A DNA stretch of 64,000 nucleotides from Nocardioides marmoribigeumensis (GTDB lineage Bacteria > Actinomycetota > Actinomycetes > Propionibacteriales > Nocardioidaceae). The first letter of the stretch is position 1; each line of letters opens with the position of its first letter. The notes beneath the pieces were generated by a model. That model saw only the letters and a list, made by a program, of their open reading frames with translations, was not told the origin of the DNA and searched no databases. Below are positions 12,455-36,000 of the stretch, one piece after another. The DNA lies in NCBI RefSeq assembly GCF_031458325.1, contig NZ_JAVDYG010000001.1, positions 372,001 to 436,000 of the forward strand. Direction: 5' to 3'. A program made the translations under genes and the position numbers.

Positions 12455-13432
12455 TCAGGCGTGGTGACCCCGGCTCTCGAGCTCGGCGACGATGGCCGGG
12501 ACGACCTCGTGCATGTCCCCGACGACCGCGTAGGTGGCCTTGGTCATCATCGGCGCCTCGGCGTCGGTGTTGATCGCCAGGATGACCTTGGACGAGGCGC
12601 AGCCGGCCCAGTGCTGGATGGCGCCGCTGATGCCGCACGGGATGTAGACCTCGGGCGAGATCCGCGACCCGGTCTGGCCGATCTGCTCGTGGTGCGGGCG
12701 CCAGCCCAGGCTGGTCACCACACGTGAGACGCCCAGCTCACCGCCCAGGATCCTCGCCAGGTCGCTCACCGGCCCGAACCCCTGCGGGCCTCCGGCGCCG
12801 CGGCCGGCACCGACCACGACCCGCGCGGACTTCAGCCCGGCGGAGTGGTCGGGGCCCGCCTGCTCGACCGACACCACGCGCGCCACGCGCGCGACCTCGG
12901 GCACGTCGACCTCGTGCTCGGTGAGCGAGGGGTCGGACGGCGAGGCCGCAGGGACGGGGGCGACGGCGTGACCGGCCAGCGAGAGGACCACCGGGATCCC
13001 CTCGACGCGGGTCTCCTCGAGCACCGAGCCACCCATCACCTGCCGGTGGACGACGACGGGGTCGGCGGAGGTCAGGGCCACCACGTTGGCGGCGAAGGGG
13101 ACCTCGCGCTCGGCCGCGAGGTGCGCGAGCACCTCGTTGCCCCGCTCGGTGCCCGCGGCGAGGACGACCTCCGCCGCGGTCGCCTTCTGCACCGCCGACA
13201 CCCCGGCCGCCCAGGCGGCACCGCCGTAGGTCTCCGACGCGGCCCCGGTCACCAGGTGGACGGCGTCCACGCCGTAGGCCGTGAGCTGGTCGACCGCCTC
13301 CTCGGACGGCTCCCCGAGGACGACGACGTGCACCTCACCGGCACCGACGGGGTGCTCGCGGGCGAAGGTGACCGCCTCCCGCGAGACCTCGGTGAGGCCG
13401 GAGGCGTCCAGCTCGACGAGCACGAGGGTCAT
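12455..13432 (-). CDS. etfA: electron transfer flavoprotein alpha subunit
   Basis: A 325-residue ETF alpha (FixB type). The C-terminal FAD-binding domain has GQTGSRISPEVYIPCGISG and AIQHWAGCASSKVILAINTD; the N-terminal domain is the usual alpha/beta fold. It carries electrons from an FAD dehydrogenase to ETF:quinone oxidoreductase. Its ATG overlaps the etfB stop (13429-13432), and etfB overlaps the dimethylglycine dehydrogenase gene. It is therefore a private acceptor for that dehydrogenase, as with betaine-catabolic ETFs in pseudomonads. Confidence 0.94.
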   Translation of the reverse strand: MTLVLVELDASGLTEVSREAVTFAREHPVGAGEVHVVVLGEPSEEAVDQLTAYGVDAVHLVTGAASETYGGAAWAAGVSAVQKATAAEVVLAAGTERGNEVLAHLAAEREVPFAANVVALTSADPVVVHRQVMGGSVLEETRVEGIPVVLSLAGHAVAPVPAASPSDPSLTEHEVDVPEVARVARVVSVEQAGPDHSAGLKSARVVVGAGRGAGGPQGFGPVSDLARILGGELGVSRVVTSLGWRPHHEQIGQTGSRISPEVYIPCGISGAIQHWAGCASSKVILAINTDAEAPMMTKATYAVVGDMHEVVPAIVAELESRGHHA

Positions 13433-14196
13433 CGCGCCACTCCCAGTTTCTCGAGCAGGTCGACCACGGCGCCCGCTGCCTGCTTGCCCTCACCGAGCAC
13501 CACCACGCTGCTCGGCTGCGCGGGCGGCAGGAGCAGACGCACCCTGCCCGGCCCGACCGGGTCGGCCGACGGCACCCGCCGCTCGACCTCGACCTTCTTG
13601 GCCTTCATCCGCCCGGTGATCGTCGGGTAGCGCGGCTCCACGCCGCCCTCGAGGATCGTGGCGACCGCCGGCGTCGGCACGCGGTAGGTCTCGCGGCCCT
13701 CCGGTCCCTCCCCGTGGGCGACGACGGCGTCGCCGTCGGCGCTCACCTCGGTGACGCCGTTGACCACCGGTCGCCCGAGCGCGTGCGCGACCCGGATGCC
13801 GACCTGGTGGTCGCCGGTGTCGGCCGCGTCGTTGCCCAGCAGCACCAGGTCGTACGCCGTCCCGGCCGCCTCGTGGTCACGCACGACCGCCGCGATCTCC
13901 CGGGCGACGTCCGAGGGGCCGAAGGCGGAGGAGTCCGCCTCGACGAGCACGGCCGCGGTGCACCCCACGCCGAGGGCGGCCCGGAGCTGGTCCACCGCGT
14001 CGGCGGACCCGAGCGTCATCACCGTCGCCGTGCCGCCGGTCGCGCCGGCGACCTCGATCGCGATCTCGACCGCGCACTCCTCGTGGGCGCTGGTCGTGTA
14101 GCCGACGTAGCGCGCGTCGACCTCCTGCGCGTCGGCGGTCAGCAGCACCTCCCCGGAGGTCTCCGGGACGCGCTTGACGCACACCAGGACGTTCAC
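13429..14196 (-). CDS. etfB: electron transfer flavoprotein beta subunit
   Basis: A 255-residue ETF beta (FixA type). It begins VNVLVCVKRVPETSGEVLL and contains LVLLGNDAADTGDHQVGIRVAHALGRP and the conserved ITGRMKAKKVEVE. It binds AMP and docks on dehydrogenases through its recognition loop. The GTG at 14196 overlaps the stop of the upstream dimethylglycine dehydrogenase (GTGA). It is the second gene of the three-gene operon controlled by the operator at 16720. Confidence 0.93.
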   Translation of the reverse strand: MNVLVCVKRVPETSGEVLLTADAQEVDARYVGYTTSAHEECAVEIAIEVAGATGGTATVMTLGSADAVDQLRAALGVGCTAAVLVEADSSAFGPSDVAREIAAVVRDHEAAGTAYDLVLLGNDAADTGDHQVGIRVAHALGRPVVNGVTEVSADGDAVVAHGEGPEGRETYRVPTPAVATILEGGVEPRYPTITGRMKAKKVEVERRVPSADPVGPGRVRLLLPPAQPSSVVVLGEGKQAAGAVVDLLEKLGVAR

Positions 14197-16700
14197 GACA
14201 GCACCCGCTCGTTGGCCGGGTCGAGCAGCGGGGTGGCGTCGACCGCGGCCACGACGACCGGGTAGAGCTCCTCCATGTAGGAGACCGCCAGCTCGGTGCC
14301 CACCTGCGCCTGCTCGGGCGGCAGGTAGGCCATCAGCAGGTGCTTGCCGAGGCTCGGGGCGGACCCTGCCGTGGTGACGTAGGGGTGGTGGCCGTGGCCG
14401 TCGGTCAGCGTGCCGCCGTCGCGCGTCAGGATCGGCTCGCCGCCGAGCATGTAGCGCTTCTGGCCGCTCGCCGAGGTGTGGTCCTCGACCGTGAGCGTGC
14501 ACAGCACGGAGACCGGCGAGGACTCCCGCTGGGCGAGGTAGGCGTCCCGACCGACGAAGTCGGCGGCCTTGACCTTGGGCCGCTGCATCCCGGCCTCGAC
14601 GATCGTGCGCTCCGCGTCGAGCTCGTAGCCGTAGGCGCGGTAGCCCTTCTCCAGGCGGCCGGTCGTGCCGTAGACGCCGATGCCGACCGGGACGAGGCCG
14701 TGCTCCTGCCCCGCCGCGGTGAGCGCGTCCCACAGCGCGAGCGCGTCGCCCATCGGGACGTAGAGCTCCCAGCCCAGCTCGCCGACGTAGGAGATCCGCG
14801 AGGCCAGGACCGTGATGCCCTGCACGTCGATCTCGCGGCAGGTGAGGAAGCCGAAGCCCTCGCGGGAGACGTCGTCGGAGGTGACCGCCGCCAGGATGTC
14901 GCGCGCGCGCGGGCCCCACAGCCCGATCGTCGAGACCTCGTCGGTGCGGTCGGTCAGCGTCGTGCCGGCCGGCACGTGCCTGGCGAACCACGCCCGGTCG
15001 GCCATCCCGTGCGCGCCGCCGGTGACCACGCGGAAGTGGTCGTCACCGAGCCGCATCACGGTGAGGTCGGACCGGAAGCCGCCCTTGGCGTCGAGCACGG
15101 GGGTGTAGATCACCTTGCCGACGGCCACGTCGCACTGCGCGACGCAGGTGCGCTGCACCGCGTCGAGCGCACCGGGTCCCTCGATGTCGAACACCGCGAA
15201 GGCGGTCAGGTCGATCATCCCGGCGCGCTCGCGCATCGCGAGGTGCTCGGCGTTGATGATCGGGGACCACCAGCGCGAGTCCCACTCGTGCTCGCGGGGC
15301 ATCACGCGGTCGCCGTACTCCTCGAGCAGCGGGGCGTTGGAGGCGTACCAGAACGGGCGCTCCCAGCCGACGGTCTCGAAGAACTCCGCGCCGAGCTCCT
15401 TCTCCCGCTCGTACATCGGCGAGGTCCGCTGGGGCCGGTCGGAGGAGTACTGCTCGGCGGGGTGGACGATCCCGTAGGTCTTGTTGAACGCCTCCGACGC
15501 GCGGAGCCGGGTGTGCTCGCGACGCTTCTGGTGCGTGTAGAAGCGCGACATGTCGCTGTGGGAGATGTCGATCTCGCTGTGGCCGTGGGTCATCAGCTCG
15601 GCGACCGCGCGCCCGACGCCCGGCCCCTCCTTGATCCAGACCGCGGCCGCGACCCACAGCCCCTCGACCTCGCTCTCCCCGAGGATCGGCCAGCCGTCGC
15701 AGGTCAGCGACAGCAGCCCGTTGATCGCGTAGCGGATCTCCGCTCCCTCGCCGCCGAGCAGCTCCGGCATCAGCTCGAGCGCCTGCTCCAGCTGGGGGTC
15801 GAAGTCCTCCTCGGTGAAGGGCATCTCGGTCGGCGACAGCCTGGCCTGCTCGATGCTCGGGATGTCCTCCGGCTCGTGGAGGATCGGCCGGTGGGCGTAG
15901 GAGCCGACCTCCATGTCGGCGCCGTGCTGACGCTCGTAGCAGAAGGTGTCCATGTCGCGCACGATCGGGAAGGAGATCTCGCCCTCGCGCTCGGCCAGCT
16001 GGGCGCACGGGCCGACCGAGATCATCTGGTGCACGGCGGGCGTCAGCGGGATCGAGACCCCGGCCATGTCGCCGATCTTGGGGCTCCACACGCCGGAGGC
16101 GATGACCACGCAGTCGGCGGTGATGTCGCCCTTGTCGGTGCGCACCCGGCGGATGTGGCCGTCCTCCACGTCGAGCGCGGTGACCTCGACGTTGGGCACC
16201 GTGACGAGCACGCCCTTCTCGACCGCGCCCTCGCGCATGATCGTGCCGGCGCGCAGCGAGTCGACGACGCCGACCGACGGCGTCCAGAAGGCGCCGACGA
16301 TCTGGTCGGTGTCGAGGAAGGGCACCTTGTCGGCGACGAAGTCCTTGTCGACCAGGGCCGACTCGATGCCCCACGCCTTGGCGCTCGACATGCGCCGGCG
16401 CAGCTCCTCCATGCGCTCCTCGGTGCGGGCGACCTCGAAGCCGCCGGACTCGGTGAAGACCCCCATCTCCTTGTACTGCCGCACGGAGTCGAGCGTCAGG
16501 TCCGTGATCTCGCGGGAGTGGTCCACCGGGAAGATGAAGTTCGAGGCGTGACCGGTCGAGCCGCCGGGGTTGGGCAGCGGGCCCTGGTCGATCTGCACGA
16601 TGTCGGTCCAGCCGAGCTGGGCGAGGTGGTGGACGAGGCTGTTGCCGACGATGCCGGCACCGATGACCACGACCTGGGCGGAGGAGGGCAGCTCAGCCAT
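14193..16700 (-). CDS. dimethylglycine dehydrogenase-like FAD/THF enzyme (DAO + GcvT domains)
   Basis: An 835-residue two-part enzyme. Residues 1-390 form an FAD amine oxidase (DAO) domain with VVVIGAGIVGNSLVHHL and a C-terminal GLWVAAAVWIKEGPGVG segment. Residues ~430-830 form an aminomethyltransferase (GcvT)-like THF-binding domain with a linker of the FAO_M type. This is the layout of dimethylglycine/sarcosine dehydrogenases, which demethylate oxidatively and pass the methylene group to THF. Cotranscription with etfBA means electrons go to ETF. Given the betaine genes around it, dimethylglycine is the likely substrate; sarcosine is the alternative. Confidence 0.88.
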   Translation of the reverse strand: MAELPSSAQVVVIGAGIVGNSLVHHLAQLGWTDIVQIDQGPLPNPGGSTGHASNFIFPVDHSREITDLTLDSVRQYKEMGVFTESGGFEVARTEERMEELRRRMSSAKAWGIESALVDKDFVADKVPFLDTDQIVGAFWTPSVGVVDSLRAGTIMREGAVEKGVLVTVPNVEVTALDVEDGHIRRVRTDKGDITADCVVIASGVWSPKIGDMAGVSIPLTPAVHQMISVGPCAQLAEREGEISFPIVRDMDTFCYERQHGADMEVGSYAHRPILHEPEDIPSIEQARLSPTEMPFTEEDFDPQLEQALELMPELLGGEGAEIRYAINGLLSLTCDGWPILGESEVEGLWVAAAVWIKEGPGVGRAVAELMTHGHSEIDISHSDMSRFYTHQKRREHTRLRASEAFNKTYGIVHPAEQYSSDRPQRTSPMYEREKELGAEFFETVGWERPFWYASNAPLLEEYGDRVMPREHEWDSRWWSPIINAEHLAMRERAGMIDLTAFAVFDIEGPGALDAVQRTCVAQCDVAVGKVIYTPVLDAKGGFRSDLTVMRLGDDHFRVVTGGAHGMADRAWFARHVPAGTTLTDRTDEVSTIGLWGPRARDILAAVTSDDVSREGFGFLTCREIDVQGITVLASRISYVGELGWELYVPMGDALALWDALTAAGQEHGLVPVGIGVYGTTGRLEKGYRAYGYELDAERTIVEAGMQRPKVKAADFVGRDAYLAQRESSPVSVLCTLTVEDHTSASGQKRYMLGGEPILTRDGGTLTDGHGHHPYVTTAGSAPSLGKHLLMAYLPPEQAQVGTELAVSYMEELYPVVVAAVDATPLLDPANERVLS

Positions 16701-17937: not shown

Positions 17938-19904
17938 TCAGCCGGCACGCTCGGCTGCGGCGCGGACCACTCGGTCGATGAAGATGCCGAGCAGCACGAT
18001 GGAGAAGCCGGCCGCGATGCCCTTGCCGGCGTAGTCGATGTGGGCGATGCCGTAGATGACGTCGTACCCGAGGGCGCCGGCCCCGACGAGCCCGCCGATG
18101 ACGACCATCGCCAACACGTAGAGCAGGCCCTGGTTGGTGGCCAGGACCAAGGAGCCGCGAGCCATCGGCAGCTGCACCTTGGTGATCTCCTGCCACGTCG
18201 TCGACCCGGTGGAGCAGCACGCCTCGACGACCGCGGGGCTGACGCCGCGGACGCCGTCGCAGACGAGCTTGATCGCCGCGGGCGCGGCGTAGACCACCGA
18301 GGCGATGATCGCGGTGAACCGGGTGGACCCGAACAGGGCGAGCACCGGGATGAGGTAGACGAACGCCGGGATCGTCTGGCCGGCGTCGAGCAGCGGCCGG
18401 ATGACGAGGTCGGCGCGTCTGTTGCGAGCCATCCAGACCCCGAACACGAACGCCAGGACCATCACCAGCAGCGTGGCGACCAGCGTCATCGTGAGCACGA
18501 TCATCGTGTCGTTCCACAGGTCCAGCGCGAAGATCAGCCCCAGGCACACCACGCTGGGCAGGGCCGCCCGGCGACCGCCGATGATGACCCCCAAGGCGAG
18601 CAGCGCGGCCAGGGCCAGCCACCACGGCGAGTCGGCCAGGACCGACTGCAGGGGGTTGAGCAAGCCGTAGGACACGAGGTTCTTGAAGCTGTTGGCCAGG
18701 GGCTCGACGGCGTTGATGACCGCGTCCGCCACGTCGTTGGCGCCGTTGGCGACCGAACGGGTCAGGCCGTTGGTCGGGAAGTTCGCGGCGTCGAGGGAGT
18801 AGCGGGAGTACCAGACGGCCACGGCGACCGGGACGAGCGTGACGCCGAGCACGATCCGTCGCCGGCGCGGGTCGTCATGCCCACCGCGGGTCGCGCTCTC
18901 CGTGCGCTCGCTGGCCGCCGTCGTGGTGCGGTCGAACATGATGCCCATCAGCACGATGAGCAGTCCGGGCACCAGGCCGGCGCCGAAGTCGTTCTGGGTG
19001 AGCGCCGAGAGGACGGGCTTGCCGAGCCCGGGGCCGTTGACGTAGCCGGCGATGATGGCGATCGACAGCGCCGCCAGGATCGTCTGGTTGAGGCCCAGGA
19101 TGATCGTCTTGCGCGCCATCGGGACCTGCACCTTCCACAGGCGCTGCGCGGTGGTCTGGCCGAGCGAGTTCGTCGCCTCGATCGTGGTGGCCGAGACGTC
19201 GCGGATGCCGAACCCGGCGATGCGCACGATCGGCGGCACCGCGTAGGCGACGGTGCACACCACGGCGTTGGGCGCGCCGATGCCGAAGAGGATGAAGACG
19301 AACATCAGGTAGACGAACGTCGGCATCGTCTGGAGCATGTCCAGGACCGGGGTGATGACGGTGGCCGCACGCCGGCTGAGCCCGATCCACACGGCCAGCG
19401 GGAAGCCGATCACCACCGCGATGAACACCGAGACCAAGGTGACGATCAGCAGGTCCATCGAGTCCTGCCAGAAGCCGAAGACCCCGAAGGCGAGGAACGA
19501 CACCGCGACCAGGACTGCGATCCGCCAGGTGGCGATGGCGTAGCCGACCCACGTGGCGACGGCCACGACCCCGAGCCACCCGACCTGCGGCGCGGGACGC
19601 GGCGGCGCCGGCGTCGAGATCAGGTTCTGGAAGAACTCGATGATCACGTTGATGGCGTCGGCGACCGCCCGGGTGAAGCCGTTGCCGCCCAGGCCGTTGG
19701 CGAAGTCGCCGAGGCGCCGGTGCAGGTCGGTCTGGTCGGTGCCGGAGACCTGGACCGTGTCGTGACCGCGCGTGAACGACCAGACCACCAGCCACGTGAC
19801 GCAGACGAGGGCGACCCACACCCAGCGTGGGACGCGGCGGGTCCGTCGACCCTCGGGCGGAGCGGCCCCCGGCTCGACCGGACGTGCGAGGGTCGCGGCG
19901 GTCG

Positions 19905-19908
<4 letters not shown>
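17938..19908 (-). CDS. betaine/choline ABC transporter permease, two permease domains fused
   Basis: A 656-residue membrane protein holding two complete BPD_transp_1 (ProW-type) permease domains in tandem, where a usual OpuAB/ProW has one of about 280-350 residues. The two copies show parallel motifs: [18 protein letters not shown] in the first half and [18 protein letters not shown] in the second, each followed by a coupling helix ([19 protein letters not shown] and [19 protein letters not shown]). One chain could thus form the whole membrane pore. The ATG overlaps the ATPase gene stop by 4 nt. Confidence 0.93.
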
Positions 19909-20950
<1,042 letters not shown>

Positions 20951-20954
<4 letters not shown>

Positions 20955-24183: not shown

Positions 24184-24217
24184 GAGAGGCTCCTTCCCCC
24201 TGGTCCGGCGCGACGGC

Positions 24218-25131: not shown

Positions 25132-25178
25132 CGTAGACCGCATGACGCTCCGACCGCACCCCCGAGGGGAGGTGCTCC

Positions 25179-26639: not shown

Positions 26640-26709
26640 GGGCTGGCTCCCTCCCCGACGCGCCGGTGCTCGTCGGCTGCTTGACGACGCGGGCGATTCG
26701 GCCTCACGA

Positions 26710-26729
26710 TGTGGAACAGTTGTTCCACA
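26710..26729. promoter_or_regulatory. inverted repeat in the methyltransferase/iclR2 divergent region
   Basis: TGTGGAACAGTTGTTCCACA, an inverted repeat with perfect 9-bp arms, lies between the divergent MttB-family gene and the second IclR gene, ending 2 bp before the chosen ATG. The GGAAC/GTTCC core resembles known IclR-family operators. It differs from the GTTGC-N7-GCAAC sites, so it is probably the site of the adjacent regulator. Confidence 0.7.
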
Positions 26730-26731
26730 AC

Positions 26732-27553
26732 ATGGGAGTCGGGTCAAGCATCGTGAACAGGTCCGGGAGCACCGCCCCCGTCGCGGCGGGAGCCGGCGGG
26801 ACGCAGGCGGTCGACCGCGCCGCGGCCCTGCTCACGCTGATCGTCGAGTCCGACGGGCCCGTGACCTTCACCGAGCTGGCCGAGCGCACCGGCCTCGCCC
26901 GGTCCACCACCTCCCGGCTGCTCTCCGCGCTCGAGCGCACCGACCTGCTGGCCCGTCACGACGACGGCTATGCCCCCGGACGGCTGTTCGCCGAGCACGC
27001 CGCCCGGGTCGGTGCGGCGGACCCGCACGGCGACCTGCTGAGCGCCGCGTCGCCCTACCTCGACGAGCTCGCGGCCGAGAGCCGCGAGTCGGCCCACCTC
27101 GCGGTCGTGCGTCACGGCCGCCTGGTGCACATCGCCAACGTCGAGACCAGCCACCACCTCCTCGGTGCCCGCGACTGGGACGCCGTCGACGTCCCCGACC
27201 ACTGCTCCGCCCTCGGCAAGGTGCTGCTCGCCTGGGACGTGCTGCCGCTCCCGTCCGCGCCGCTGGCCACCCCGACACCGCACTCCCTCGACGCCGTCGC
27301 CCTGGCCGAGGAGCTGCGCGTGGTCCGCCGGCGCGGCTGGGCCGAGACCCACGACGAGCTCGAGGTCGGGCTGTGCGGTGCCGCCGCGCCCGTCCGCGAC
27401 GCGCGCGGCCACGTGGTCGCCGCGCTCGGGGTCTCCGGGCCGACCGCCCGCATCGGGAACCGCGCCGACCAGCTCGGTCGGCTGATCAAGAACCGGGCGG
27501 AGGCCCTGAGCCTCCGGCTGGCCGACACACACGCTGAGGAGGGTGTGGCATGA
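26732..27553 (+). CDS. IclR-family regulator of the corrinoid methyltransferase genes
   Basis: A 273-residue IclR protein: HTH with FTELAERTGLARSTTSRLLSALERTDLL, then an effector domain with CSALGKVLLAWDVLP and GWAETHDELEVGLCGAAAPV. It is first in an operon; its stop overlaps the corrinoid-protein ATG by 4 nt. The ATG at 26732 sits just after the 20-bp operator; a GTG at 26753 is the alternative start, and neither has a strong ribosome-binding site. It is clearly distinct from the other IclR gene 1.6 kb away. Confidence 0.9.
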   Translation: MGVGSSIVNRSGSTAPVAAGAGGTQAVDRAAALLTLIVESDGPVTFTELAERTGLARSTTSRLLSALERTDLLARHDDGYAPGRLFAEHAARVGAADPHGDLLSAASPYLDELAAESRESAHLAVVRHGRLVHIANVETSHHLLGARDWDAVDVPDHCSALGKVLLAWDVLPLPSAPLATPTPHSLDAVALAEELRVVRRRGWAETHDELEVGLCGAAAPVRDARGHVVAALGVSGPTARIGNRADQLGRLIKNRAEALSLRLADTHAEEGVA

Positions 27554-28215
27554 CTCCAGAGGAGATCCTGCGCGGCCTGTACGACGAGACCCTGGTGGGC
27601 AACGCCCCACGGGTGCTCGAGCTGACGCACGAGGCGCTCGGTCAGGGCATGGAGCCGCAGTCGCTGCTCTTCGACGCCCTCATCCCGTCGCTGGAGGAGG
27701 TCGGCGCGCGGTTCGAGCGGGGCGACTTCTTCGTGCCGGAGATGCTCGTCGCGGGCCGCGCGATGGCGGGCTCGATGGAGGTGCTCAGGCCGCTGCTGGC
27801 CGACACCGGCGTCGAGACGGTCGGCAAGTTCCTGATGGGCACGGTCAAGGGCGACGTGCACGACATCGGCAAGAACCTGGTCAACATCATGCTCGAGGGC
27901 GCCGGGTTCGAGGTGATCGACCTCGGCGTGCAGGTGGCGCCGGAGAAGTTCGTCGCCGCGATCGAGGAGCACCAGCCCGACATCGTCGGCTTCTCGGCGT
28001 TCCTCACCACGACGATGCCGATGTTCAAGGCCAACCTCAACGCGCTGGAGAAGGCCGGCCTGCGCGACTCGGTGATCGTGATGGTGGGCGGGGCGCCGGT
28101 CACCCAGGAGTACGCCGACGCGGTGGGCGCCGACGGCTACGCCGCCGACGCCTCCGCCACCGTCAAGCGCGCCAAGGCGCTCCTGGGCGAGCGTCGGGCC
28201 AAGGTGCCTGCATGA
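27550..28215 (+). CDS. corrinoid (B12-binding) protein of a methyltransferase system (MtgC/MttC-like)
   Basis: A 221-residue methyl-carrier. Residues 1-85 are the helical B12-binding cap domain (GDFFVPEMLVAGRAM). Residues 90-221 are the Rossmann cobalamin domain with the lower-ligand motif GDVHDIGKNLVNIML (DxHxxG), then IVGFSAFLTTTMP and MVGGAPVTQEYAD. The cobalt takes a methyl group from the MttB-family enzyme and gives it to the THF methyltransferase encoded next. ATGA overlap with iclR2, and its own stop overlaps the next ATG. Confidence 0.95.
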   Translation: MTPEEILRGLYDETLVGNAPRVLELTHEALGQGMEPQSLLFDALIPSLEEVGARFERGDFFVPEMLVAGRAMAGSMEVLRPLLADTGVETVGKFLMGTVKGDVHDIGKNLVNIMLEGAGFEVIDLGVQVAPEKFVAAIEEHQPDIVGFSAFLTTTMPMFKANLNALEKAGLRDSVIVMVGGAPVTQEYADAVGADGYAADASATVKRAKALLGERRAKVPA

Positions 28216-29102
28216 GCGGCGGGGTCCACTACGAGACCCGGCTGCGGTCGGCGACCCAGGAGGTCGTCATCGGCCGCGGGCACCGGTTCTGCCTGATCGG
28301 CGAGCGGATCAACCCGACCGGTCGCCGGATCTTCCAGGACCAGCTGCGCGCGGGCGACCTGTCGGCGATCGAGCGCGACGTGCACGCCCAGGTGGTCGGG
28401 GGCGCCGACGTGCTCGACGTCAACATGGGGGTGCCGCTGACCGACGAGGCCGAGCTGCTCAGCCAGGCGGTGCAGCTGATCCAGAAGCTCACCGACAAGC
28501 CGCTGTGCATCGACTCCTCGGTGGTCGAGGCGCTCGAGGCGGGGCTCTCGGTCTACCAGGGCCGCGCGCTGGTCAACTCGGTCACCGCCGAGGACGAGCG
28601 CCTCGAGCAGATCCTCCCGATCGTCAAGAAGTACGACGCCGCGGTGATCGCGCTGCCCAACGACGTCGACGAGATCCCGATGGAGCCCGAGAAGCGGCTC
28701 GAGCTGGTGCAGAAGATCCTCGACGTGGCCACGGGCGAGTACGGCATCGCCGCCCACGACATCCTCATCGACCCGCTCGCGATGCCGATCGGCGCCGACA
28801 CCGCCACCGGCGAGGCCACGCTGGAGACGATGCGCCGCGTCCGCGACGAGCACGGCCTCAACATGACCTGCGGGGCGTCCAACGTCTCGTTCGGGATGCC
28901 CGGCCGCCACGAGCTCAACGCCGCCTTCCTCACCGCGGCGATGACCTCCGGGCTGACCAGCGCGATCATGGACGTCCGCACCCCCTCGATCGTCAGCGCG
29001 GTCAAGGCCACCGACCTGCTGCTCGGCCACGACGAGTGGGGCATGGAGTGGATCGCCCGGAGCCGCGCGGCGACGGCAGCAGCGGCAGCCGGTCAGGCGT
29101 GA
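28212..29102 (+). CDS. methyl-corrinoid:tetrahydrofolate methyltransferase (pterin-binding, MtgA/MeTr-like)
   Basis: A 296-residue pterin-binding TIM barrel. It begins with FCLIGERINPTGRRIFQDQL, followed by GADVLDVNMGVPLTDE, LCIDSSVVEALEAGL, ILIDPLAMPIG and NMTCGASNVSFGMPGRHELN, which are conserved in MeTr/MtvA/MtgA and MetH pterin domains. It would move the methyl group from the corrinoid protein to THF, giving 5-methyl-THF. It is embedded in the operon by 4-nt overlaps on both sides. Confidence 0.93.
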   Translation: MSGGVHYETRLRSATQEVVIGRGHRFCLIGERINPTGRRIFQDQLRAGDLSAIERDVHAQVVGGADVLDVNMGVPLTDEAELLSQAVQLIQKLTDKPLCIDSSVVEALEAGLSVYQGRALVNSVTAEDERLEQILPIVKKYDAAVIALPNDVDEIPMEPEKRLELVQKILDVATGEYGIAAHDILIDPLAMPIGADTATGEATLETMRRVRDEHGLNMTCGASNVSFGMPGRHELNAAFLTAAMTSGLTSAIMDVRTPSIVSAVKATDLLLGHDEWGMEWIARSRAATAAAAAGQA

Positions 29103-30979
29103 GCGAGGCTCCCGCACCTGCAGCCCGGGTCCGGCTGGACTTCCGGGTGCACGAGGCCGCCTCCGGCCCGGCTGCGGGCGAGGTGCGGGAGCGCGACGTG
29201 CGGGTCCCCCCGGGAGTCGCGGTCTTCGACGCCGCGTCGTGGAACGGCATCGCGATCGACTCCACCTGCGGGGGCCACGGCACCTGCCACAAGTGCAAGG
29301 TGCGGATCACCGACGCGGAGGACGTCGAGGTCACCCGCCACGACGCCAAGACGTTCTCGGCCGAGGAGCTCGCCGACGGGTGGCGGCTGGCCTGCCTGGT
29401 GAGGGCGCAGCGTGACCTGCGGGTCGACGTACCCCCGCTCGTGACGCGGCCCAAGGCCGCGACCGTCGGCGTGGGCCGGCAGGTGATCCTGCGGCCGGCG
29501 GTGCAGAAGCGCTACGTCGAGCTCGACGAGCCGACGCTGTCGGACCAGCGCACCGACCTCGAGCGCCTGCTCGGCGCGCTCGACGACCTCGACGTCACCG
29601 TCGACCTGCCCGTGCTGCGCCGGCTGCCCGGGGAGCTGAGACGCCACGACTTCAAGGTGACCGCGGTCGTCGACGACACCTCGCTGGTCGACGTCGAGGG
29701 CGGCGACACCACGGCGGTGTGCCACGGCATCGCCTTCGACCTCGGCACGACGACCGTGGTCGCCACGCTGCTCGACCTCACCACCGGCACCCCCAAGGCG
29801 GTCGCGTCGCGGCTCAACGCGCAGCAGCCGTTCGGCGCCGACGTGATCACGCGCATCAGCGCGACGATGATGGACCCCGACGCGCTGGACCGGTTGCGCG
29901 CCCTCGCCGCCGAGACGCTCGACGCGCTCGCGCAGGAGGTCTGCAAGGACGCCGGGGTCGACCCCGAGCACGTCTACGAGGTCGCGCTCGCGGGCAACGC
30001 CACGATGACCGCGCTGGCCCTGGGCATCGACCCGGAGCCGCTCGGGGTCGCGCCGTTCGTGATGTCGACCGCCCACCCGCCGGTGGTGCTCGCCTCCGAC
30101 CTCGGCGTGGCCGTCCACCCCCGCGCCCGGGCGGTGCTGTTCCCGGCGCTCGGGGCCTACGTCGGCGGCGACATCGTCGCGGGCATGCTGGCGACGGGCA
30201 TGGACCGCGACAAGCGCACGCGCCTGTTCATCGACGTCGGCACCAACTGCGAGATCGTGCTCAGCGACGGAGACCGCATCGTGGCGACGGCCGCGCCCGC
30301 CGGGCCGGCGTTCGAGGGCGGGGCGATCCGCTCCGGCATGCGCGCCTCCGACGGCGCGATCGAGGTCGTCCGGCTCGCCGTCGACCCCAAGGCCGTCGAG
30401 GCGGTCACCCTCGGGGTCATCGGCGACGTCGCCCCCCGCGGCCTCTGCGGGTCGGGGCTGGTCGACGCGGTCGCCGAGCTGGTGCGGGTCGGGCTGCTCG
30501 ACGCCAGCGGCCGCTTCGTCACCGACGAGGTGGCGGCGCAGCGCGTCCCCCACCTGGCACCCCGACTGACCACGGTCGACCAGGAGCGGATCTTCCGCCT
30601 CGCCGACGACGTGGTCCTCTCCCAGCGCGACGTGCGCGAGCTGCAGTTCGCCAAGGCCGCGATCTCGACCGGGTGGACCCTGCTGCTCGAGGAGCTCGGG
30701 CTCGAGCCCGGCGACGTCCAGCAGGTGCTGCTCGCCGGATCGTTCGGCTCCTACATCTCCGCCGCCTCCGCCGTGCGCATCGGCCTGGTGCCGCCGCTAC
30801 CCGCGCTGCGCATCGTCTCCGCCGGCAACGTCGCCGGGGAGGGCGCCAAGATGGCGCTGCTCTCCGTGCGCGAGCGTGCCGGCGCCGTCGCGCTGCTCGA
30901 GGAGGTGACCTATGTCGAGCTCTCCGACCGCAGCGACTTCAACGACCGCTTCGTCGACCTCCTCGCCTTCCCCGTCTGA
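29099..30979 (+). CDS. RACE protein: ATP-dependent reductive activator of corrinoid enzymes (2Fe-2S + ASKHA)
   Basis: A 626-residue protein. The N-terminal [2Fe-2S] domain (residues ~10-110) has CGGHGTCHKCKV plus a later LACLV cysteine. A linker leads to an ASKHA ATPase part with FDLGTTTVVATLLDL, EVALAGNATMTALALG, RLFIDVGTNCEIVL and LLAGSFGSYISAASA. RACE proteins reduce inactive Co(II) cobalamin to Co(I) using ATP, repairing accidental oxidation. That would matter especially in an organism expected to live with O2. The GTG at 29099 overlaps the upstream stop. Confidence 0.93.
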   Translation: MSEAPAPAARVRLDFRVHEAASGPAAGEVRERDVRVPPGVAVFDAASWNGIAIDSTCGGHGTCHKCKVRITDAEDVEVTRHDAKTFSAEELADGWRLACLVRAQRDLRVDVPPLVTRPKAATVGVGRQVILRPAVQKRYVELDEPTLSDQRTDLERLLGALDDLDVTVDLPVLRRLPGELRRHDFKVTAVVDDTSLVDVEGGDTTAVCHGIAFDLGTTTVVATLLDLTTGTPKAVASRLNAQQPFGADVITRISATMMDPDALDRLRALAAETLDALAQEVCKDAGVDPEHVYEVALAGNATMTALALGIDPEPLGVAPFVMSTAHPPVVLASDLGVAVHPRARAVLFPALGAYVGGDIVAGMLATGMDRDKRTRLFIDVGTNCEIVLSDGDRIVATAAPAGPAFEGGAIRSGMRASDGAIEVVRLAVDPKAVEAVTLGVIGDVAPRGLCGSGLVDAVAELVRVGLLDASGRFVTDEVAAQRVPHLAPRLTTVDQERIFRLADDVVLSQRDVRELQFAKAAISTGWTLLLEELGLEPGDVQQVLLAGSFGSYISAASAVRIGLVPPLPALRIVSAGNVAGEGAKMALLSVRERAGAVALLEEVTYVELSDRSDFNDRFVDLLAFPV

Positions 30980-31592
30980 CCTGCCCGAGGTCGCGGTCAT
31001 CGCGTGCGGGGCGATCGCGCAGCACTGCGCCGAGGCCGCGCAGCGCCACGGCTGGCCCGTGCGCGTCCACCCGCTCCCCCCGCTGCTGCACAACCGCCCC
31101 GAGCGCATCGCCGGCGAGGTGGCCGCCCTCGCGACGAGGCTGCTCGCCGAGGGACGTCGGGTCGCCGTGGGCTTCGCCGACTGCGGCACCTACGGCGCGC
31201 TCGACGAGGTCTGCGACGGTCTCGGGCTCGACCGGCTGCCCGGGCTGCACTGCTACGACCTCTACGCCGGGGCCGAGCGCGTGCGCGCGACGTTCGAGGA
31301 GCAGCCCGGCACCTACGTCCTCACCGACTTCCTGGTCCGGTCCTTCGACCGCACGGTCGTCACCGAGCTCGGGCTCGACCGGCACCCCGAGCTCCGCGAG
31401 GCCTACTTCGCCCACTACACGCGCGTCGTGTGGCTGGCCCAGCACCCGACCCCGGAGCTCGAGCAGCTCGCCGCGCGGGCGGCCGCGACCCTCGGCCTGC
31501 CGCTCACCACCGTCCCGACCGGCCTGGTGCTGCTCGAGGAGGCCCTCGCCGGCCTGCTCGACGCACCCGTCCCGGCCACCCACGTCGTCTAG
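30912..31592 (+). CDS. DUF1638 family protein
   Basis: A 226-residue protein. After a Ser/Thr-rich N-terminus comes the DUF1638 core: EVAVIACGAIAQHCAEAA, PLLHNRPERIAGEVAAL, VGFADCGTYGALDEVC, LHCYDLYAG and TDFLVRSFDRTV. Conserved Cys, His and Asp residues suggest a metal or cofactor site. The function is unknown; homologs are best known beside corrinoid methyltransferase genes of methylotrophic archaea and bacteria. The ATG at 30912 has GGAGGTG upstream but lies 68 nt inside the RACE gene, an unusually long overlap. Confidence 0.85.
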   Translation: MSSSPTAATSTTASSTSSPSPSDLPEVAVIACGAIAQHCAEAAQRHGWPVRVHPLPPLLHNRPERIAGEVAALATRLLAEGRRVAVGFADCGTYGALDEVCDGLGLDRLPGLHCYDLYAGAERVRATFEEQPGTYVLTDFLVRSFDRTVVTELGLDRHPELREAYFAHYTRVVWLAQHPTPELEQLAARAAATLGLPLTTVPTGLVLLEEALAGLLDAPVPATHVV

Positions 31593-31616: not shown

Positions 31617-33308
31617 GTGCAGTCAGACCTCGCCATCGCCCGCTCCGCCGCCCTCAAGCCCCTCGACGAGGTGGCGGCCTCGATGGGGATCGGGCCGGAC
31701 CTCCTCGAGCCCTACGGCGAGAACGTCGCCAAGATCAAGCTCAAGGCCGTCGATGAGCTCGCCGACCGGCCGCCGGCGAAGTACGTCGTCGTCACCGCCA
31801 TCACCCCCACGCCGCTCGGCGAGGGCAAGACGACGACCACCGTCGGGCTCGGCCAGGCGTTCAAGCACATCGGCAAGCGGGCGACGATCGCCATCCGGCA
31901 GCCGTCGATGGGCCCGACGTTCGGCATCAAGGGCGGCGCGGCCGGCGGGGGCTGGTCGCAGGTGGTGCCGATGGAGCTGCTCAACCTGCACCTCACCGGC
32001 GACATGCACGCCGTGACCGCGGCCCACAACCTGCTCTCGGCGATGCTCGACAACTCGCTGCACCAGGGCAACCCGCACGACCTCGACCTCGACGCGATCA
32101 CCTGGCGCCGGGTGCTCGACGTCAACGACCGGGCGCTGCGCAACATCGTGGTGGGTCTCGGCGGCAAGGAGGACGGGGTCACCCGGCAGACCGGCTTCGA
32201 CATCACCGCGGCCTCTGAGGTGATGGCCGTCCTCGCTTTGTCCACCTCGTTGCAGGACCTGCGCCGCCGGCTCGGCCGCGTCGTCGTGGGCTACACCCGC
32301 GCCGGTGACCCGGTCACCGCCGAGGACCTGCAGGCGGCGGGCTCGATGGCGGTGATCATGCGCGAGGCGATCAAGCCCAACCTCCTGCAGACGCTGGAGA
32401 ACACGCCGGTCCTCGTGCACGCCGGGCCGTTCGGCAACATCGCGCACGGCAACTCCAGCGTCGTGGCGGACCTGATCGGCATCCGCGGCGGGGACTACCT
32501 GGTGACCGAGGCGGGCTTCGGCGCCGACATCGGCGGGGAGAAGTTCTTCAACATCAAGTGCCGCACCTCCGGGCTGCGGCCCGACGCCGCCGTGGTCGTC
32601 GCGACCGTCCGCGCGCTCAAGGCCCACTCGGGCCGCCACCGCGTGGTCGCCGGGCGGCCCCTGCCCGAGGCGATGCTGCAGGAGAACCCCGACGAGGTGC
32701 TCGAGGGAGCGGCCAACCTGGTCAAGCAGATCGACAACGTCCGGCTGCACGGCGTCTCCCCCGTCGTCGCGATCAACGCGTTCCCGGAGGACTTCGCCTC
32801 CGAGCACGAGGCGATCCGCCAGGTCGCCGAGCAGGCCGGTGCCCGGGTCGCGGTCTGCACCCACTTCAGCGACGGCGGCCGCGGCGCGATCGAGCTCGCC
32901 GAGGCCGTGGCGGAGGCGAGCGCGGAGCCGACGGACTTCCGCTTCCTCTACCCCGCCGCGGCGAGCCTGCGCGAGAAGATCGAGACGATCGCGGAGCGGG
33001 TGTACGGCGCGGACGGCGTCGACTACAGCCCGGCCGCGAGCCGCCAGCTCGACACCTACGAGCGCAACGGGTTCGGCGACCTGCCGGTCTGCATCGCCAA
33101 GACCCACCTCTCGATCTCCAGCGACCCGTCGCTCAAGGGCGCACCGACCGGCTGGCGCCTGCCGGTGCGCGAGGTGCGGGCCAACATCGGCGCGGGTTTC
33201 GTCTACCCGATCTGCGGAGACATGCGGACCATGCCCGGCCTTGGCACGCGTGCGGCGGCGATGTCGATCGACCTCGACGACGACGGCGAGATCGTGGGGC
33301 TGTCCTGA
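31617..33308 (+). CDS. fhs: formate-tetrahydrofolate ligase
   Basis: A 563-residue 10-formyl-THF synthetase. The P-loop is PTPLGEGKTTTTVGLGQA, followed by RQPSMGPTFGIKGGAAGGG, THF-side motifs NLHLTGDMHAV and FGNIAHGNSS, and the C-terminal GDMRTMPGLG. The enzyme is reversible. Placed after a demethylation system it should run towards formate + ATP, so that methyl oxidation yields ATP. The GTG at 31617 has GGAGG at 7 nt. It follows DUF1638 by 24 bp in the same operon. Confidence 0.96.
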   Translation: MQSDLAIARSAALKPLDEVAASMGIGPDLLEPYGENVAKIKLKAVDELADRPPAKYVVVTAITPTPLGEGKTTTTVGLGQAFKHIGKRATIAIRQPSMGPTFGIKGGAAGGGWSQVVPMELLNLHLTGDMHAVTAAHNLLSAMLDNSLHQGNPHDLDLDAITWRRVLDVNDRALRNIVVGLGGKEDGVTRQTGFDITAASEVMAVLALSTSLQDLRRRLGRVVVGYTRAGDPVTAEDLQAAGSMAVIMREAIKPNLLQTLENTPVLVHAGPFGNIAHGNSSVVADLIGIRGGDYLVTEAGFGADIGGEKFFNIKCRTSGLRPDAAVVVATVRALKAHSGRHRVVAGRPLPEAMLQENPDEVLEGAANLVKQIDNVRLHGVSPVVAINAFPEDFASEHEAIRQVAEQAGARVAVCTHFSDGGRGAIELAEAVAEASAEPTDFRFLYPAAASLREKIETIAERVYGADGVDYSPAASRQLDTYERNGFGDLPVCIAKTHLSISSDPSLKGAPTGWRLPVREVRANIGAGFVYPICGDMRTMPGLGTRAAAMSIDLDDDGEIVGLS

Positions 33309-33865
33309 CCGCGCCACTGGGTCCCTCCACCACCGTCGGCGAGCTCCTCGCGGCGGTCAGCGCCCCGACCCCGGCCCCGGGGGCGGGGGCGGTCGTCGCG
33401 GTGACCGCGGCTCTGGCCGCGTCACTGGCGGCGATGTCGGCCGGTTCCTCGTCGCGTGAGCTCCCCGACGCCGACGCCCTGGTGGCGCGGGCCGAGGAGG
33501 CCCGTGACCGGTTGCTGCCGCTGGCGCAGCAGGACGGCGAGGTCTACGCCGACGTGCTCACCGCACGGCGCCGGCCCGCCTCGCCGGACCGGGACGCCCC
33601 GCTGCGCGCAGCGCTGGAGCGCGCCAGCGAGGTGCCCCTGGAGCTGGCCCGCGCGGCTGCCGAGGTGGCGCAGGTCGCCGACCGGGTCGTGGCCGAGGGC
33701 AACCCGCACCTGCGGGGGGACGCCGAGACCGCCGGTCTGCTCGCCCGCACGGCCCTCACGGCCGCGGTCGGGCTGGTCGAGGCCAACCTGTCGAGGACGG
33801 ACCCCGACCACCCCAGCCTCGTCGAGGCCCGGAGTCTGGCCGCCCGGGTCAGCGCGACACGTTGA
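33305..33865 (+). CDS. cyclodeaminase-family protein, predicted methenyl-THF cyclohydrolase (FchA-like)
   Basis: About 186 residues of the FTCD_C/FchA helical family: TVGELLAAVSAPTPAPGAGAVVAV at the start, AALAASLAAMSAGSS, and helices ending VADRVVAEGNPHLRGDAETA (GNxxxxGDAxxA, conserved). FchA opens 5,10-methenyl-THF to 10-formyl-THF, the step before fhs in the oxidative direction. No ATG, GTG or TTG precedes the conserved N-terminus in this frame. The likely start is the CTG at 33305, which overlaps the fhs stop as CTGA, like the GTGA/ATGA overlaps elsewhere. Confidence 0.82.
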   Translation: MTAPLGPSTTVGELLAAVSAPTPAPGAGAVVAVTAALAASLAAMSAGSSSRELPDADALVARAEEARDRLLPLAQQDGEVYADVLTARRRPASPDRDAPLRAALERASEVPLELARAAAEVAQVADRVVAEGNPHLRGDAETAGLLARTALTAAVGLVEANLSRTDPDHPSLVEARSLAARVSATR

Positions 33866-34243: not shown

Positions 34244-35113
34244 CTAGGCGACGGCCAGGCGTCCCAGCATCTCCTGGCGCCAGGCCTCGGTCTCGGCGAC
34301 CTGGTTGAAGGTGAAGACGTGCAGGCCCGCGACCAGGAGGTCGGGCTCCGAGGCCGTCCCGGCGCACTGCTCCAGGAACCGCTCGCCGGTGAACCCGCCC
34401 GGTGCGGCGAGGCGCGCGAGCGTGCCCTTGTGCTTGGTGAGGAAGCGCGTGGACTCCCCCACGCCGATCCTGGTCGCCATCGTGAGCAGCTTGGCGCGGT
34501 CGATGGGTCCGGGCACCCCGAGCAGCACCGGCATCGTCACGCCGCGCCGGCGCAGCCGGCGCACCCAGCTGTCGATGACCTCGGGGTCGAAGGTCAGGTT
34601 GCTCACGATGTGCGTTGCGTGGCGCCGCTTGTCCCACATCGACTGCACCGTCAAGTCGTCGTGGATCGTGGGGTGCGACTCGGGATAGCCGGTGATCCCG
34701 ACGTGGCCGAAGGGGTTGCCGATCGCGGTGAGGTCCTCGAGCAGGCTCAGGGCGTCGGGGTAGTCGCCCACCGGGTCGGCGTCCCCGCCCGGCACGAAGA
34801 CGTGGGTGATCCCGCCGTCCACCAGGCGCCGGGCGATCTCCGCCAGCTCGGCGCGGTCGTGCACCATCCGCGCGGCCAGGTGGGGCACGGCGACGTACCC
34901 CTCGGCCGCGAGGCGGAGGGAGAGCTCGAAGGTCGCCTCCAGGCCCTTGGACGCCGACGCGGTCACGGTGACGGGCGTGTGGTGGGGGACGTGCGCGCAG
35001 ACCTTGTCGTACGCCGTGCCGGTCGGCAGCACCTCGTAGCGGGCGTTCTCCAGCAGGCGCTTGACCGTCGCGGGCCGAGCGGCGCGACGGGGCCTCGTGT
35101 TGTTGCGCATCAT
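34244..35113 (-). CDS. metF: methylenetetrahydrofolate reductase homolog
   Basis: A 289-residue MTHFR-family flavoprotein: VTVTASASKGLEATFELSLRL, then VPHLAARMVHDRAELAEIARRL, ITHVFVPGGDAD, GITGYPESHP and a C-terminal GLHVFTFNQVAETEAWRQEML. In this setting it would oxidise 5-methyl-THF from the corrinoid system to 5,10-methylene-THF, the reverse of its biosynthetic role. The ATG at 35113 (or 35110) lies inside operator site D, so it is probably coregulated with the betaine genes. It is shorter and more divergent than canonical MetF. Confidence 0.87.
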   Translation of the reverse strand: MMRNNTRPRRAARPATVKRLLENARYEVLPTGTAYDKVCAHVPHHTPVTVTASASKGLEATFELSLRLAAEGYVAVPHLAARMVHDRAELAEIARRLVDGGITHVFVPGGDADPVGDYPDALSLLEDLTAIGNPFGHVGITGYPESHPTIHDDLTVQSMWDKRRHATHIVSNLTFDPEVIDSWVRRLRRRGVTMPVLLGVPGPIDRAKLLTMATRIGVGESTRFLTKHKGTLARLAAPGGFTGERFLEQCAGTASEPDLLVAGLHVFTFNQVAETEAWRQEMLGRLAVA

Positions 35114-35118: not shown

Positions 35119-35226
35119 CCGTTTCGTCTTGCGCGAACTTGCGTCCTCAGGCTAGTGCCCGCGCCACCCCCGCGCCAGACTGCGGAGCACCCCGTGTCGC
35201 CGCGCGCACCGTCCCGAAGGAGTCCC

Positions 35227-36000
35227 ATGACCTCACAGCCCGAGTCCGACGACCGCCCCGCCTACAAGCCCCTCCCCGAGGACTGGCGCAAGGCGGTCGC
35301 CATCGTCGCCCACCCCGACGACATGGAGTTCGGCGCCGCCGCGGCCGTGGCGCGCTGGACCCGCCAGGGCAAGGAGGTCGTCTACGTCATGGTGACCAGC
35401 GGCGAGGCCGGCATCGACGGCATCGAGCCCGAGGAGTGCCGCACGCTCCGCGAGCGCGAGCAGGTCGAGTCAGCCCGCATCGTCGGGGTCGACACCGTCG
35501 AGTTCCTCGGGTTCCCGGACGGGGTGGTGGAGTACGGCATCCCGCTGCGCAAGGCGATCTCCGAGGTCGTGCGCCGCCACCAGCCGGAGATCGTCATCAC
35601 CGGCAACTTCCGCGACACCTTCGGTCCGGGCGCGCTCAACCAGGCCGACCACATCGCCGTGGGCCGCGCGGTCATCGACGGGGTCCGCGACGCTGCCAAC
35701 CGCTGGATCCACACCGACCAGCTCTCCCAGGGCCTGGAGAAGTGGGGCGGGGTCTCCGCGGTCTGGGCGGCCGGCTCACCCGGGGCCAGGCACGCGGTCG
35801 ACACCACCGACACCTTCCAGCTCGGCGTCCTGTCCCTGCAGGCCCACCGTGCCTACATCGACGGGCTCGGCTGGGACGACTTCGACGAGGAGGAGATGCT
35901 CGAGGGCTTCTGCCGCCCGATCGGGAGCGCGATCGGCACGACGTACGGCACGTCCTTCGAGGTCTACTCGCTCACCTGGGGCGGCGACGAGGACGCCTGA
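35227..36000 (+). CDS. PIG-L family deacetylase
   Basis: A 257-residue LmbE/PIG-L zinc hydrolase. The metal motif is VAIVAHPDDMEFGAAAAV (AHPDDxE), with the second part MVTSGEAGIDGIEPEECRTLREREQ and a later His in QADHIAVGRAVIDGV. The family removes acetyl groups from GlcNAc-type compounds, for example in mycothiol synthesis. The substrate here is unknown. It is divergent from the metF homolog and shares its control region. The ATG at 35227 has GAAGGAG upstream. Confidence 0.92.
   Translation: MTSQPESDDRPAYKPLPEDWRKAVAIVAHPDDMEFGAAAAVARWTRQGKEVVYVMVTSGEAGIDGIEPEECRTLREREQVESARIVGVDTVEFLGFPDGVVEYGIPLRKAISEVVRRHQPEIVITGNFRDTFGPGALNQADHIAVGRAVIDGVRDAANRWIHTDQLSQGLEKWGGVSAVWAAGSPGARHAVDTTDTFQLGVLSLQAHRAYIDGLGWDDFDEEEMLEGFCRPIGSAIGTTYGTSFEVYSLTWGGDEDA

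What the first reader, a model, noticed from the sequence alone, without database searches (positions are those of the whole stretch)
12455..36000. Complete aerobic-looking choline/betaine to formate route with a corrinoid methyltransferase system
Seen: uptake, betA and betB; an MttB-family enzyme, corrinoid protein, MeTr and RACE; dimethylglycine dehydrogenase with its own ETF; a MetF homolog, cyclohydrolase and fhs, all in 24 kb. Known: MtgB-type betaine demethylation is best described in anaerobes and some marine bacteria, and is O2-sensitive at cobalt. Inference: this actinobacterium uses corrinoid demethylation instead of, or beside, an oxygenase for the first step, and recovers ATP through fhs. 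Methylene-THF dehydrogenase and sarcosine oxidase must be elsewhere.
Basis: partly seen in the sequence, partly recalled or inferred. Interest (0 to 1): 0.88.

Follow-up and report, generated by a model that had tools for sequence, protein, structure and literature searches.

The report
Vitamin-B12 betaine demethylation in actinobacteria
An actinobacterium carries one compact set of genes that most likely takes a methyl group off betaine with a vitamin B12 enzyme instead of an oxygenase and oxidises it to formate, an actinobacterial version of a pathway already shown in marine bacteria.

Summary
Window 12455-35113 encodes uptake, BetA/BetB, a non-pyrrolysine MttB, corrinoid protein, MeTr, RACo-type reactivator, DUF1638, Fhs, FchA, a divergent MetF, and a dimethylglycine-oxidase-family enzyme with ETF. 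The genome has one MttB, one FolD, B12-synthesis genes and no GbcA-like oxygenase at E<=1e-60. The module recurs: in 53 of 53 full-flank actinobacterial loci MttB sits with MtgC, MeTr, RACo and DUF1638, and in 52 of 53 with betA/betB and/or the dimethylglycine enzyme. Nocardioides limicola has GbcAB-like genes in the same island. A palindrome between mttB and iclR2 is conserved (75 of 81) and found at one place in this genome. MttB forms its own clade, outside proven MtgB, so betaine specificity rests on gene context; MtpB, MtcB and MtyB could not be compared. Aerobic corrinoid betaine demethylation was shown in a marine proteobacterium in 2025 (PMC12478193). New here: the actinobacterial variant, ending in Fhs/FchA where 41 of 53 relatives carry PurU.

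The parts
12455..13432 (-). etfA, electron transfer flavoprotein alpha
   Evidence: ETF_alpha and ETF domains
13429..14193 (-). etfB, electron transfer flavoprotein beta
   Evidence: ETF domain; real start inside the longer ORF
14193..16700 (-). dimethylglycine oxidase/dehydrogenase-family enzyme (DAO + FAO_M + GCV_T)
   Evidence: Pfam; best PDB 1pj5 dimethylglycine oxidase 510 bits
16891..17877 (-). OpuAC-type choline/betaine substrate-binding protein
   Evidence: PF04069; TIGR03414 below cut-off
17938..19902 (-). two-domain ABC permease, choline/betaine type
   Evidence: TIGR03416 331 bits, cut-off 363; two BPD_transp_1 stretches
19905..20948 (-). ABC ATPase
   Evidence: ABC_tran
20951..22657 (-). 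betA, choline dehydrogenase
   Evidence: TIGR01810 803 bits over cut-off 732
22705..24258 (-). betB, betaine aldehyde dehydrogenase
   Evidence: best family TIGR01804, 602 bits, cut-off 669
24338..25159 (-). IclR-family regulator 1
   Evidence: IclR_C and HTH_IclR; 49 of 53 full-flank loci
25179..26645 (-). mttB-like methyltransferase, no in-frame stop (start probably 26639)
   Evidence: PF06253 620 bits; only copy in the genome; alignment A1
26705..26734 (.). IclR-type palindromic operator candidate
26666..27553 (+). IclR-family regulator 2 (true start probably downstream of the palindrome)
   Evidence: IclR_C and HTH_IclR; 52 of 53 full-flank loci
27550..28215 (+). MtgC-like corrinoid protein with DVHDIG motif
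   Evidence: best family NF047996, 203 bits, cut-off 370; motif
28215..29102 (+). MeTr, methyl-THF:corrinoid methyltransferase
   Evidence: Pterin_bind; best PDB 2yck 139 bits
29105..30979 (+). RACo-type ASKHA reactivator with [2Fe-2S] domain
   Evidence: RACo domains and Fer2; 3zyy 329 bits; CGGHGTCHKC
30972..31592 (+). DUF1638 protein
   Evidence: PF07796; model pLDDT 88
31617..33308 (+). fhs, formate--THF ligase
   Evidence: NF010030 802 bits over cut-off 652
33311..33865 (+). fchA-type methenyl-THF cyclohydrolase (FTCD_C)
   Evidence: PF04961 102 bits
33849..34244 (-). cupin; role unknown
   Evidence: Cupin_2; no tblastn hit in the 80 named loci
34244..35113 (-). metF2, divergent short MTHFR homolog
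   Evidence: PF02219 37.6 bits; 7xg9 104 bits

Best explanation
The island is a choline/glycine betaine catabolic gene set. Choline or betaine enters through the OpuAC-type ABC transporter, and BetA and BetB make glycine betaine. MttB moves one methyl group to Co(I) of the MtgC-like protein, leaving dimethylglycine. MeTr passes the methyl to tetrahydrofolate. RACo, together with DUF1638, re-reduces oxidised cobalt at the cost of ATP, which is what would let the route run in an aerobe. MetF2 oxidises methyl-THF to methylene-THF. The dimethylglycine enzyme, and perhaps the DAO-GCV_T paralog at 2.54 Mb for sarcosine, would load the next two carbons as methylene-THF, the first passing electrons to the adjacent ETF. 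FolD and FchA make formyl-THF, and Fhs releases formate and makes ATP. One or both IclR regulators act on the palindrome between mttB and iclR2. Shown: the genes, their order, their conservation, the palindrome. Inferred: each reaction, the substrate, the direction of MetF2 and Fhs, and the regulation.
For: Gene content. MttB, MtgC, MeTr, RACo, DUF1638 together in 34 of 34 and 53 of 53 full-flank loci. betA/betB and/or the dimethylglycine enzyme near MttB in 52 of 53; an out-group of another class has the ETF-dimethylglycine pair on the same contig as MttB, IclR2 and MtgC. GbcAB-like genes in the N. limicola island. One FolD, cobI/J, cobM and cobaltochelatase genes, no GbcA-like hit. Palindrome conserved in 75 of 81 upstream regions and at one place in the genome. 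Precedent: MtgC and MtgD needed for betaine growth in aerobic Ruegeria, MetF2 and DUF1638 induced there (PMC12478193).
Against: MttB is in a clade of its own, outside 2qne MtgB and 4yyc, and no member of that clade has a tested substrate known to me. The dimethylglycine enzyme looks more like an oxidase, and no ETF-QO was found, so the ETF's acceptor is unknown. MttB and GbcA are not statistically exclusive. One of 53 loci (L142) has neither bet genes nor the dimethylglycine gene near. MtgC and BetB score below NCBIfam cut-offs. No expression, growth or enzyme data.
Confidence: 0.75

Rival explanations
1. MttB demethylates another quaternary amine (carnitine, proline betaine, gamma-butyrobetaine or choline itself) and only shares uptake and regulation with the choline genes; betaine is kept as an osmolyte or degraded otherwise.
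For: MttB-superfamily members have several substrates (MtyB paper passages); the clade is separate from MtgB; alphaproteobacterial paralogs L200 and L202 sit by other catabolic genes.
Against: betA/betB and/or the dimethylglycine enzyme near MttB in 52 of 53 loci; GbcAB-like genes in the same island of N. limicola; no carnitine- or proline-betaine-specific gene was seen among the window island's genes.
Confidence: 0.15
2. The corrinoid module mainly serves methionine synthesis, as the split methionine synthase does in Phaeobacter and Ruegeria.
For: MtgC and MtgD have that dual role in Ruegeria, RamA-like and DUF1638 proteins in Phaeobacter; a second S-methyl_trans protein (372-aa frame) exists at 2.72 Mb and was not typed further.
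Against: An S-methyl_trans match in a 1244-residue open frame at 4.18 Mb looks like full-length MetH; no S-methyl_trans gene was found in the window; the module stands with choline/betaine genes in most loci.
Confidence: 0.04
3. The folate genes run the other way: Fhs, FchA/FolD and MetF2 make methyl-THF from formate, and the corrinoid system consumes it to methylate an acceptor.
For: These folate enzymes can in principle run both ways (general knowledge).
Against: A canonical MetF (298 bits) exists elsewhere; 41 of 53 relatives carry PurU, a formyl-THF hydrolase, near mttB; MetF2 is induced on betaine in Ruegeria and proposed oxidative there.
Confidence: 0.06

Closest known systems
Aerobic MtgBCD glycine betaine pathway of Ruegeria pomeroyi and relatives (Mausz et al. 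2025, PMC12478193; parts 1-4 of 6 read)
   Same: MttB-family first enzyme, MtgC-like corrinoid protein, pterin-binding methyltransferase, RamA-like and DUF1638 proteins, a second MetF, THF-linked C1 oxidation, aerobic setting
   Different: Here one MttB instead of several; separate MttB clade; a MetH-like protein also present; genes in two divergent operons with bet, ETF and fhs/fchA genes and an IclR-type palindrome; in Ruegeria the genes are scattered and MtgC/MtgD also make methionine
Desulfitobacterium hafniense MtgB-MtgC-MtgA (anaerobic)
   Same: Non-pyrrolysine MttB homolog with corrinoid protein and methyl transfer to THF; 2qne 374 bits
   Different: MtgA has no sequence likeness to earlier solved structures (PMC7154762, part 1 of 2 read) whereas this MeTr matches MeTr structures
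MttB-centred module on a Paracoccus methylovorus plasmid (L196)
   Same: MttB, B12-binding protein, DUF1638, MeTr, ASKHA protein and MetF together
   Different: Two-part MetF/MetF-C instead of the short MetF2; no bet genes within 8 kb; MttB 46% identical
GbcAB glycine betaine monooxygenase route
   Same: Same presumed step, betaine to dimethylglycine
   Different: Oxygenase making formaldehyde (PMC12478193); not found in this genome at E<=1e-60
Chloromethane Cmu pathway (recalled)
   Same: Aerobic corrinoid demethylation into THF with a second MetF and release of formate
   Different: CmuA fuses methyltransferase and corrinoid domains and acts on chloromethane (recalled); here the proteins are separate and the first is MttB-type

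Membership tests
MttB superfamily (PF06253) | Pfam match over cut-off along the protein | tested here: met
   620 bits, residues 23-521 of 522
Pyrrolysine MttB (trimethylamine) | In-frame amber codon at the pyrrolysine site; TIGR02369 cut-off | tested here: not met
   No stop in the frame; the X of 7xcl aligns with Leu; 264.5 bits against 525
MtgB glycine betaine methyltransferase | Groups with proven MtgB in a tree | tested here: not met
   Own clade 100/100 without 2qne; M. vulcani and A. woodii MtgB not included
MtgB glycine betaine methyltransferase | Transfers the methyl of betaine to cob(I)alamin | not testable with these tools
   Needs enzyme assay
MtpB, MtcB, MtyB (other quaternary amines) | Groups with a proven member | not tested
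   E. limosum sequences could not be fetched
Aerobic MtgBCD pathway (PMC12478193) | MttB-type, MtgC-type, pterin methyltransferase, RamA-like, DUF1638 and second MetF all present | tested here: met
Aerobic MtgBCD pathway (PMC12478193) | Required for aerobic growth on betaine | not testable with these tools
   Needs mutants
MtgA-type THF methyltransferase | Sequence match to MtgA structures 6SJ8/6SK4 | tested here: not met
   17 PDB matches of MeTr, none of these entries
GbcAB monooxygenase route | GbcA-like protein in the genome | tested here: not met
   No hit at E<=1e-60 in the own genome; 11 of 293 genomes of the order have one
Oxidative MetF2 | Runs methyl-THF to methylene-THF | not testable with these tools
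   Inferred from context and from likeness to 7xg9

The most novel reading that the evidence does not exclude
Actinobacteria that are aerobes as far as I recall (Nocardioides, Marmoricola, Phycicoccus, Mumia, Kineosporia) share an IclR-controlled corrinoid betaine demethylase with its own MttB clade. This window's organism has rebuilt its ending: Fhs plus FchA in place of the usual PurU, turning the last step of methyl oxidation from a hydrolysis into an ATP-making reaction, while N. limicola keeps an oxygenase route in the same island.
Probability: 0.6. Interest if true: 0.65.

Novelty: new variant of a known kind. Interest (0 to 1): 0.52.

Why it matters
If right, a cobalt(I) methyl-transfer route usually associated with anaerobes is an ordinary way for aerobic actinobacteria to consume one of the commonest osmolytes. 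It ties betaine turnover in soil to B12 supply and removes the need for oxygen, and for handling formaldehyde, at the first demethylation. The natural set (MttB only, GbcA only, both in one island, PurU versus Fhs/FchA endings) makes the costs and benefits of each choice testable, and the RACo-DUF1638 pairing gives a handle on the unknown role of DUF1638.

Tried and rejected
Rejected: that the cluster is a chance collection (53 of 53); that MttB is a pyrrolysine enzyme; that a SoxA-type sarcosine oxidase is present (GCV_T search: GcvT, the window enzyme, one DAO-GCV_T fusion and a weak 43-bit match at 1.64 Mb that I did not identify); that MttB and GbcA exclude each other (1 genome with both among 35 with MttB and 11 with GbcA in 293, Fisher p = 1.0).

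Led nowhere: the DUF1638 fold search gave no match at E<=0.001 (best 1.1e-3) and TM-scores of at most 0.45 in the 50 rows shown, although the model is confident; DUF1638 has no PDB sequence match. The operator half-site elsewhere in the window: 7 hits against 4.2 expected, 14 of 100 shuffles reach 7. GbcB alone as a marker was too unspecific (245 of 293 genomes match at E<=0.001). Literature: of ten searches, those aimed at this module in Nocardioides or other Actinomycetota gave listings in which I saw no description of it; the one statement found is that 5% of ocean mtgC reads are Actinomycetota. Most listed papers were not opened.

Not done for lack of cap or data: E. limosum MtpB, MtcB, MtyB and Ruegeria MtgB1/2 in the tree; PurU, formate dehydrogenase and a monomeric sarcosine oxidase in the own genome; naming the host genus; the second structure prediction.
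Full report
Observation. Codon-position GC and family scans give two divergent gene rows. On the minus strand: mttB, iclR1, betB, betA, ABC ATPase, a two-domain permease, OpuAC binding protein, a dimethylglycine oxidase/dehydrogenase-family enzyme, etfB, etfA. On the plus strand: iclR2, an MtgC-like corrinoid protein, MeTr (Pterin_bind), a RACo-type activator with a [2Fe-2S] domain, DUF1638, fhs and fchA. A cupin and a divergent metF homolog (MetF2) follow on the minus strand. BetA passes its NCBIfam cut-off (803 against 732 bits); BetB (602 against 669) and MtgC (203 against 370) are best matches below cut-off.

Host. The genome is one contig of 4,440,796 bases and the window is 372001-436000 of it. 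The genus was not named.

More than chance. In the order, 35 of 293 genomes carry PF06253 (the own genome among them), each with one match, all in the host's family. I fetched about 20 kb around MttB in the 34 others. MttB, MtgC, MeTr, RACo and DUF1638 are together in 34 of 34, IclR2 in 33, MetF2 in 32, and BetA, BetB and IclR1 in 31 each. A scan of named species genomes gave 394 relatives, of which the best 80 were kept, in Nocardioides, Marmoricola, Mumia, Phycicoccus, Kineosporia, Agilicoccus and others; some are metagenome bins whose names may be wrong. Of these 80, 53 have at least 9.5 kb on both sides. In the 53: MttB, MtgC, MeTr, RACo and DUF1638 53, IclR2 and MetF2 52, IclR1 49, ABC 46, BetA 44, BetB 44, permease 37, SBP 21, Fhs 18, dimethylglycine gene 10. 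Over all 80, contig ends included, MtgC is seen in 77, MeTr in 75, RACo in 71, DUF1638 in 66. The two sets share species and are not independent. In an even draw over the phylum, 65 of 396 genomes have PF06253; apart from the own genome all lie outside the host's class, although one search shows that same-class families such as that of Phycicoccus have it too.

Substrate. betA/betB and/or the dimethylglycine enzyme stand near MttB in 52 of 53 full-flank loci (45 with bet genes, 7 with the dimethylglycine gene alone); the exception is L142. The nearest out-group, G500 of another class, has the ETF-dimethylglycine pair on the same short contig as MttB, IclR2 and MtgC, some 3 kb from MttB. In N. 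limicola (L150) the island also holds GbcA-like (442 bits), GbcB-like (349 bits), glutathione-independent formaldehyde dehydrogenase and PurU genes; the two Gbc matches are by far the best for those proteins but below the curated cut-offs. It is the only one of the 80 named loci with GbcA or GbcB nearby. The own genome has no GbcA-like hit at E<=1e-60, while its congener G242 has one and lacks MttB. Across 293 genomes the two systems are not statistically exclusive. Against a firm assignment: in the tree (59 rows) the actinobacterial MttB clade is fully supported (100/100) on a long stem, with 2qne (MtgB) and 4yyc outside it, and proven MtpB, MtcB and MtyB were not available. By sequence the nearest solved chain is 4yyc (443 bits; from Sinorhizobium meliloti as I recall), then 2qne and 9yce (374 and 371), with pyrrolysine MttB far behind (127).

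Carbon route. MeTr matches MeTr structures and none of the MtgA entries (MtgA paper PMC7154762, part 1 of 2 read). RACo matches 3zyy. MetF2 matches 7xg9, a short MTHFR, at 104 bits. I recall 7xg9 as the Sphingobium SYK-6 enzyme, and a review passage says the SYK-6 MTHFR favours methyl-THF oxidation (PMC13001107, passages); that link is not tool-confirmed. The genome has a canonical MetF (298 bits) and a third weak match (24 bits), one FolD, GcvT and a second DAO-GCV_T fusion, and cobI/cobJ, cobM and cobaltochelatase-like genes (the last below its cut-off). The dimethylglycine enzyme is nearer to an oxidase, yet ETF genes follow it here and in several relatives. No ETF-QO was found (the control family search rings in 3 of 14 known genomes), so the acceptor after ETF is unknown.

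A local twist. PurU lies in 41 of the 53 loci of at least 21.4 kb, beside mttB or separated from it by fhs in most gene-order patterns, and Fhs in 18, with 15 carrying both. The window has no PurU by the same search. It has Fhs and FchA at the end of the corrinoid operon, and FchA is seen in none of the 80 named loci as far as their flanks reach. Fhs run towards formate would make ATP where PurU only hydrolyses (general knowledge). A PurU elsewhere in the genome was not searched.

Regulation. Between mttB and iclR2 lies TGTGGAAC-N4-GTTCCACA, once in the window against 0.02 expected. An extended form, with up to 3 mismatches, occurs at one place in the whole genome, read on both strands, with 0 in the reversed control. 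A version with 13-base arms scores at least 19 of 26 in 75 of 81 upstream regions (own 24) and in 0 of 405 simple shuffles; the strict form TGGAAC-N2-8-GTTCCA with one flanking base is in 23 of 81. The motif was derived from these related sequences, so that contrast is descriptive; its uniqueness in the genome does not depend on it. It resembles IclR-family operators as I recall them.

DUF1638. A model from 47 window and relative sequences is confident (pLDDT 88) but has no clear PDB relative. Invariant residues include C12, H40, C71, C81, H93 and C94; of these H40, C71, H93 and C94 persist in a Paracoccus homolog (47% over 143 residues), C81 does not and C12 is outside that alignment. A metal or corrinoid site is a guess. 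In Phaeobacter, mutants tie DUF1638 to the RamA-like protein and no specific function was proposed (PMC5764234, passages).

Known and new. Mausz et al. 2025 (PMC12478193; parts 1-4 of 6, and passages) showed that MtgC and MtgD are needed for betaine growth of aerobic Ruegeria and noted that 5% of ocean mtgC reads are Actinomycetota. The principle is therefore known. New here, as far as my searches reach, are the actinobacterial island, its separate MttB clade, the palindrome, the short MetF2, the PurU versus Fhs/FchA endings, and the GbcAB-like genes in the island of N. limicola.

Verdict. Observation confirmed, interpretation partly supported, new variant of a known kind.

Noticed in passing
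window 43196-46021 (-): DnaG primase interrupted in frame by what looks like an intein of about 310 residues with a LAGLIDADG_3 domain, inserted in the zinc finger (YH|CLAGDTRV...ILTGN|CFGCG).
   Followed up: partly
window 39741-41003 (+): IS110-family transposase a few kilobases from the island.
   Followed up: no
L150 (Nocardioides limicola) 898-16891: One island holds both GbcAB-like oxygenase genes with a formaldehyde dehydrogenase and the corrinoid MttB module with PurU, the dimethylglycine enzyme and ETF, and no IclR2 match.
   Followed up: partly
L154 (Phycicoccus sp. HDW14): Two MtgC and two RACo matches in one locus; whether this is duplication or a frame break was not checked.
   Followed up: no
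L201 (Rhodobacter sp. CZR27 plasmid) 291-7437: An MttB homolog near a ring-hydroxylating oxygenase alpha subunit, a hybrid-cluster oxidoreductase and a betaine/proline ABC ATPase.
   Followed up: no
L200 5914-13434 and L202 3537-13271: Alphaproteobacterial MttB paralogs beside DHDPS-family, aldehyde dehydrogenase and FAD-binding oxidoreductase genes, so probably acting on other amines.
   Followed up: no
own genome, 2541557-2544031: Second DAO-GCV_T fusion protein (824 aa), candidate sarcosine enzyme.
   Followed up: partly
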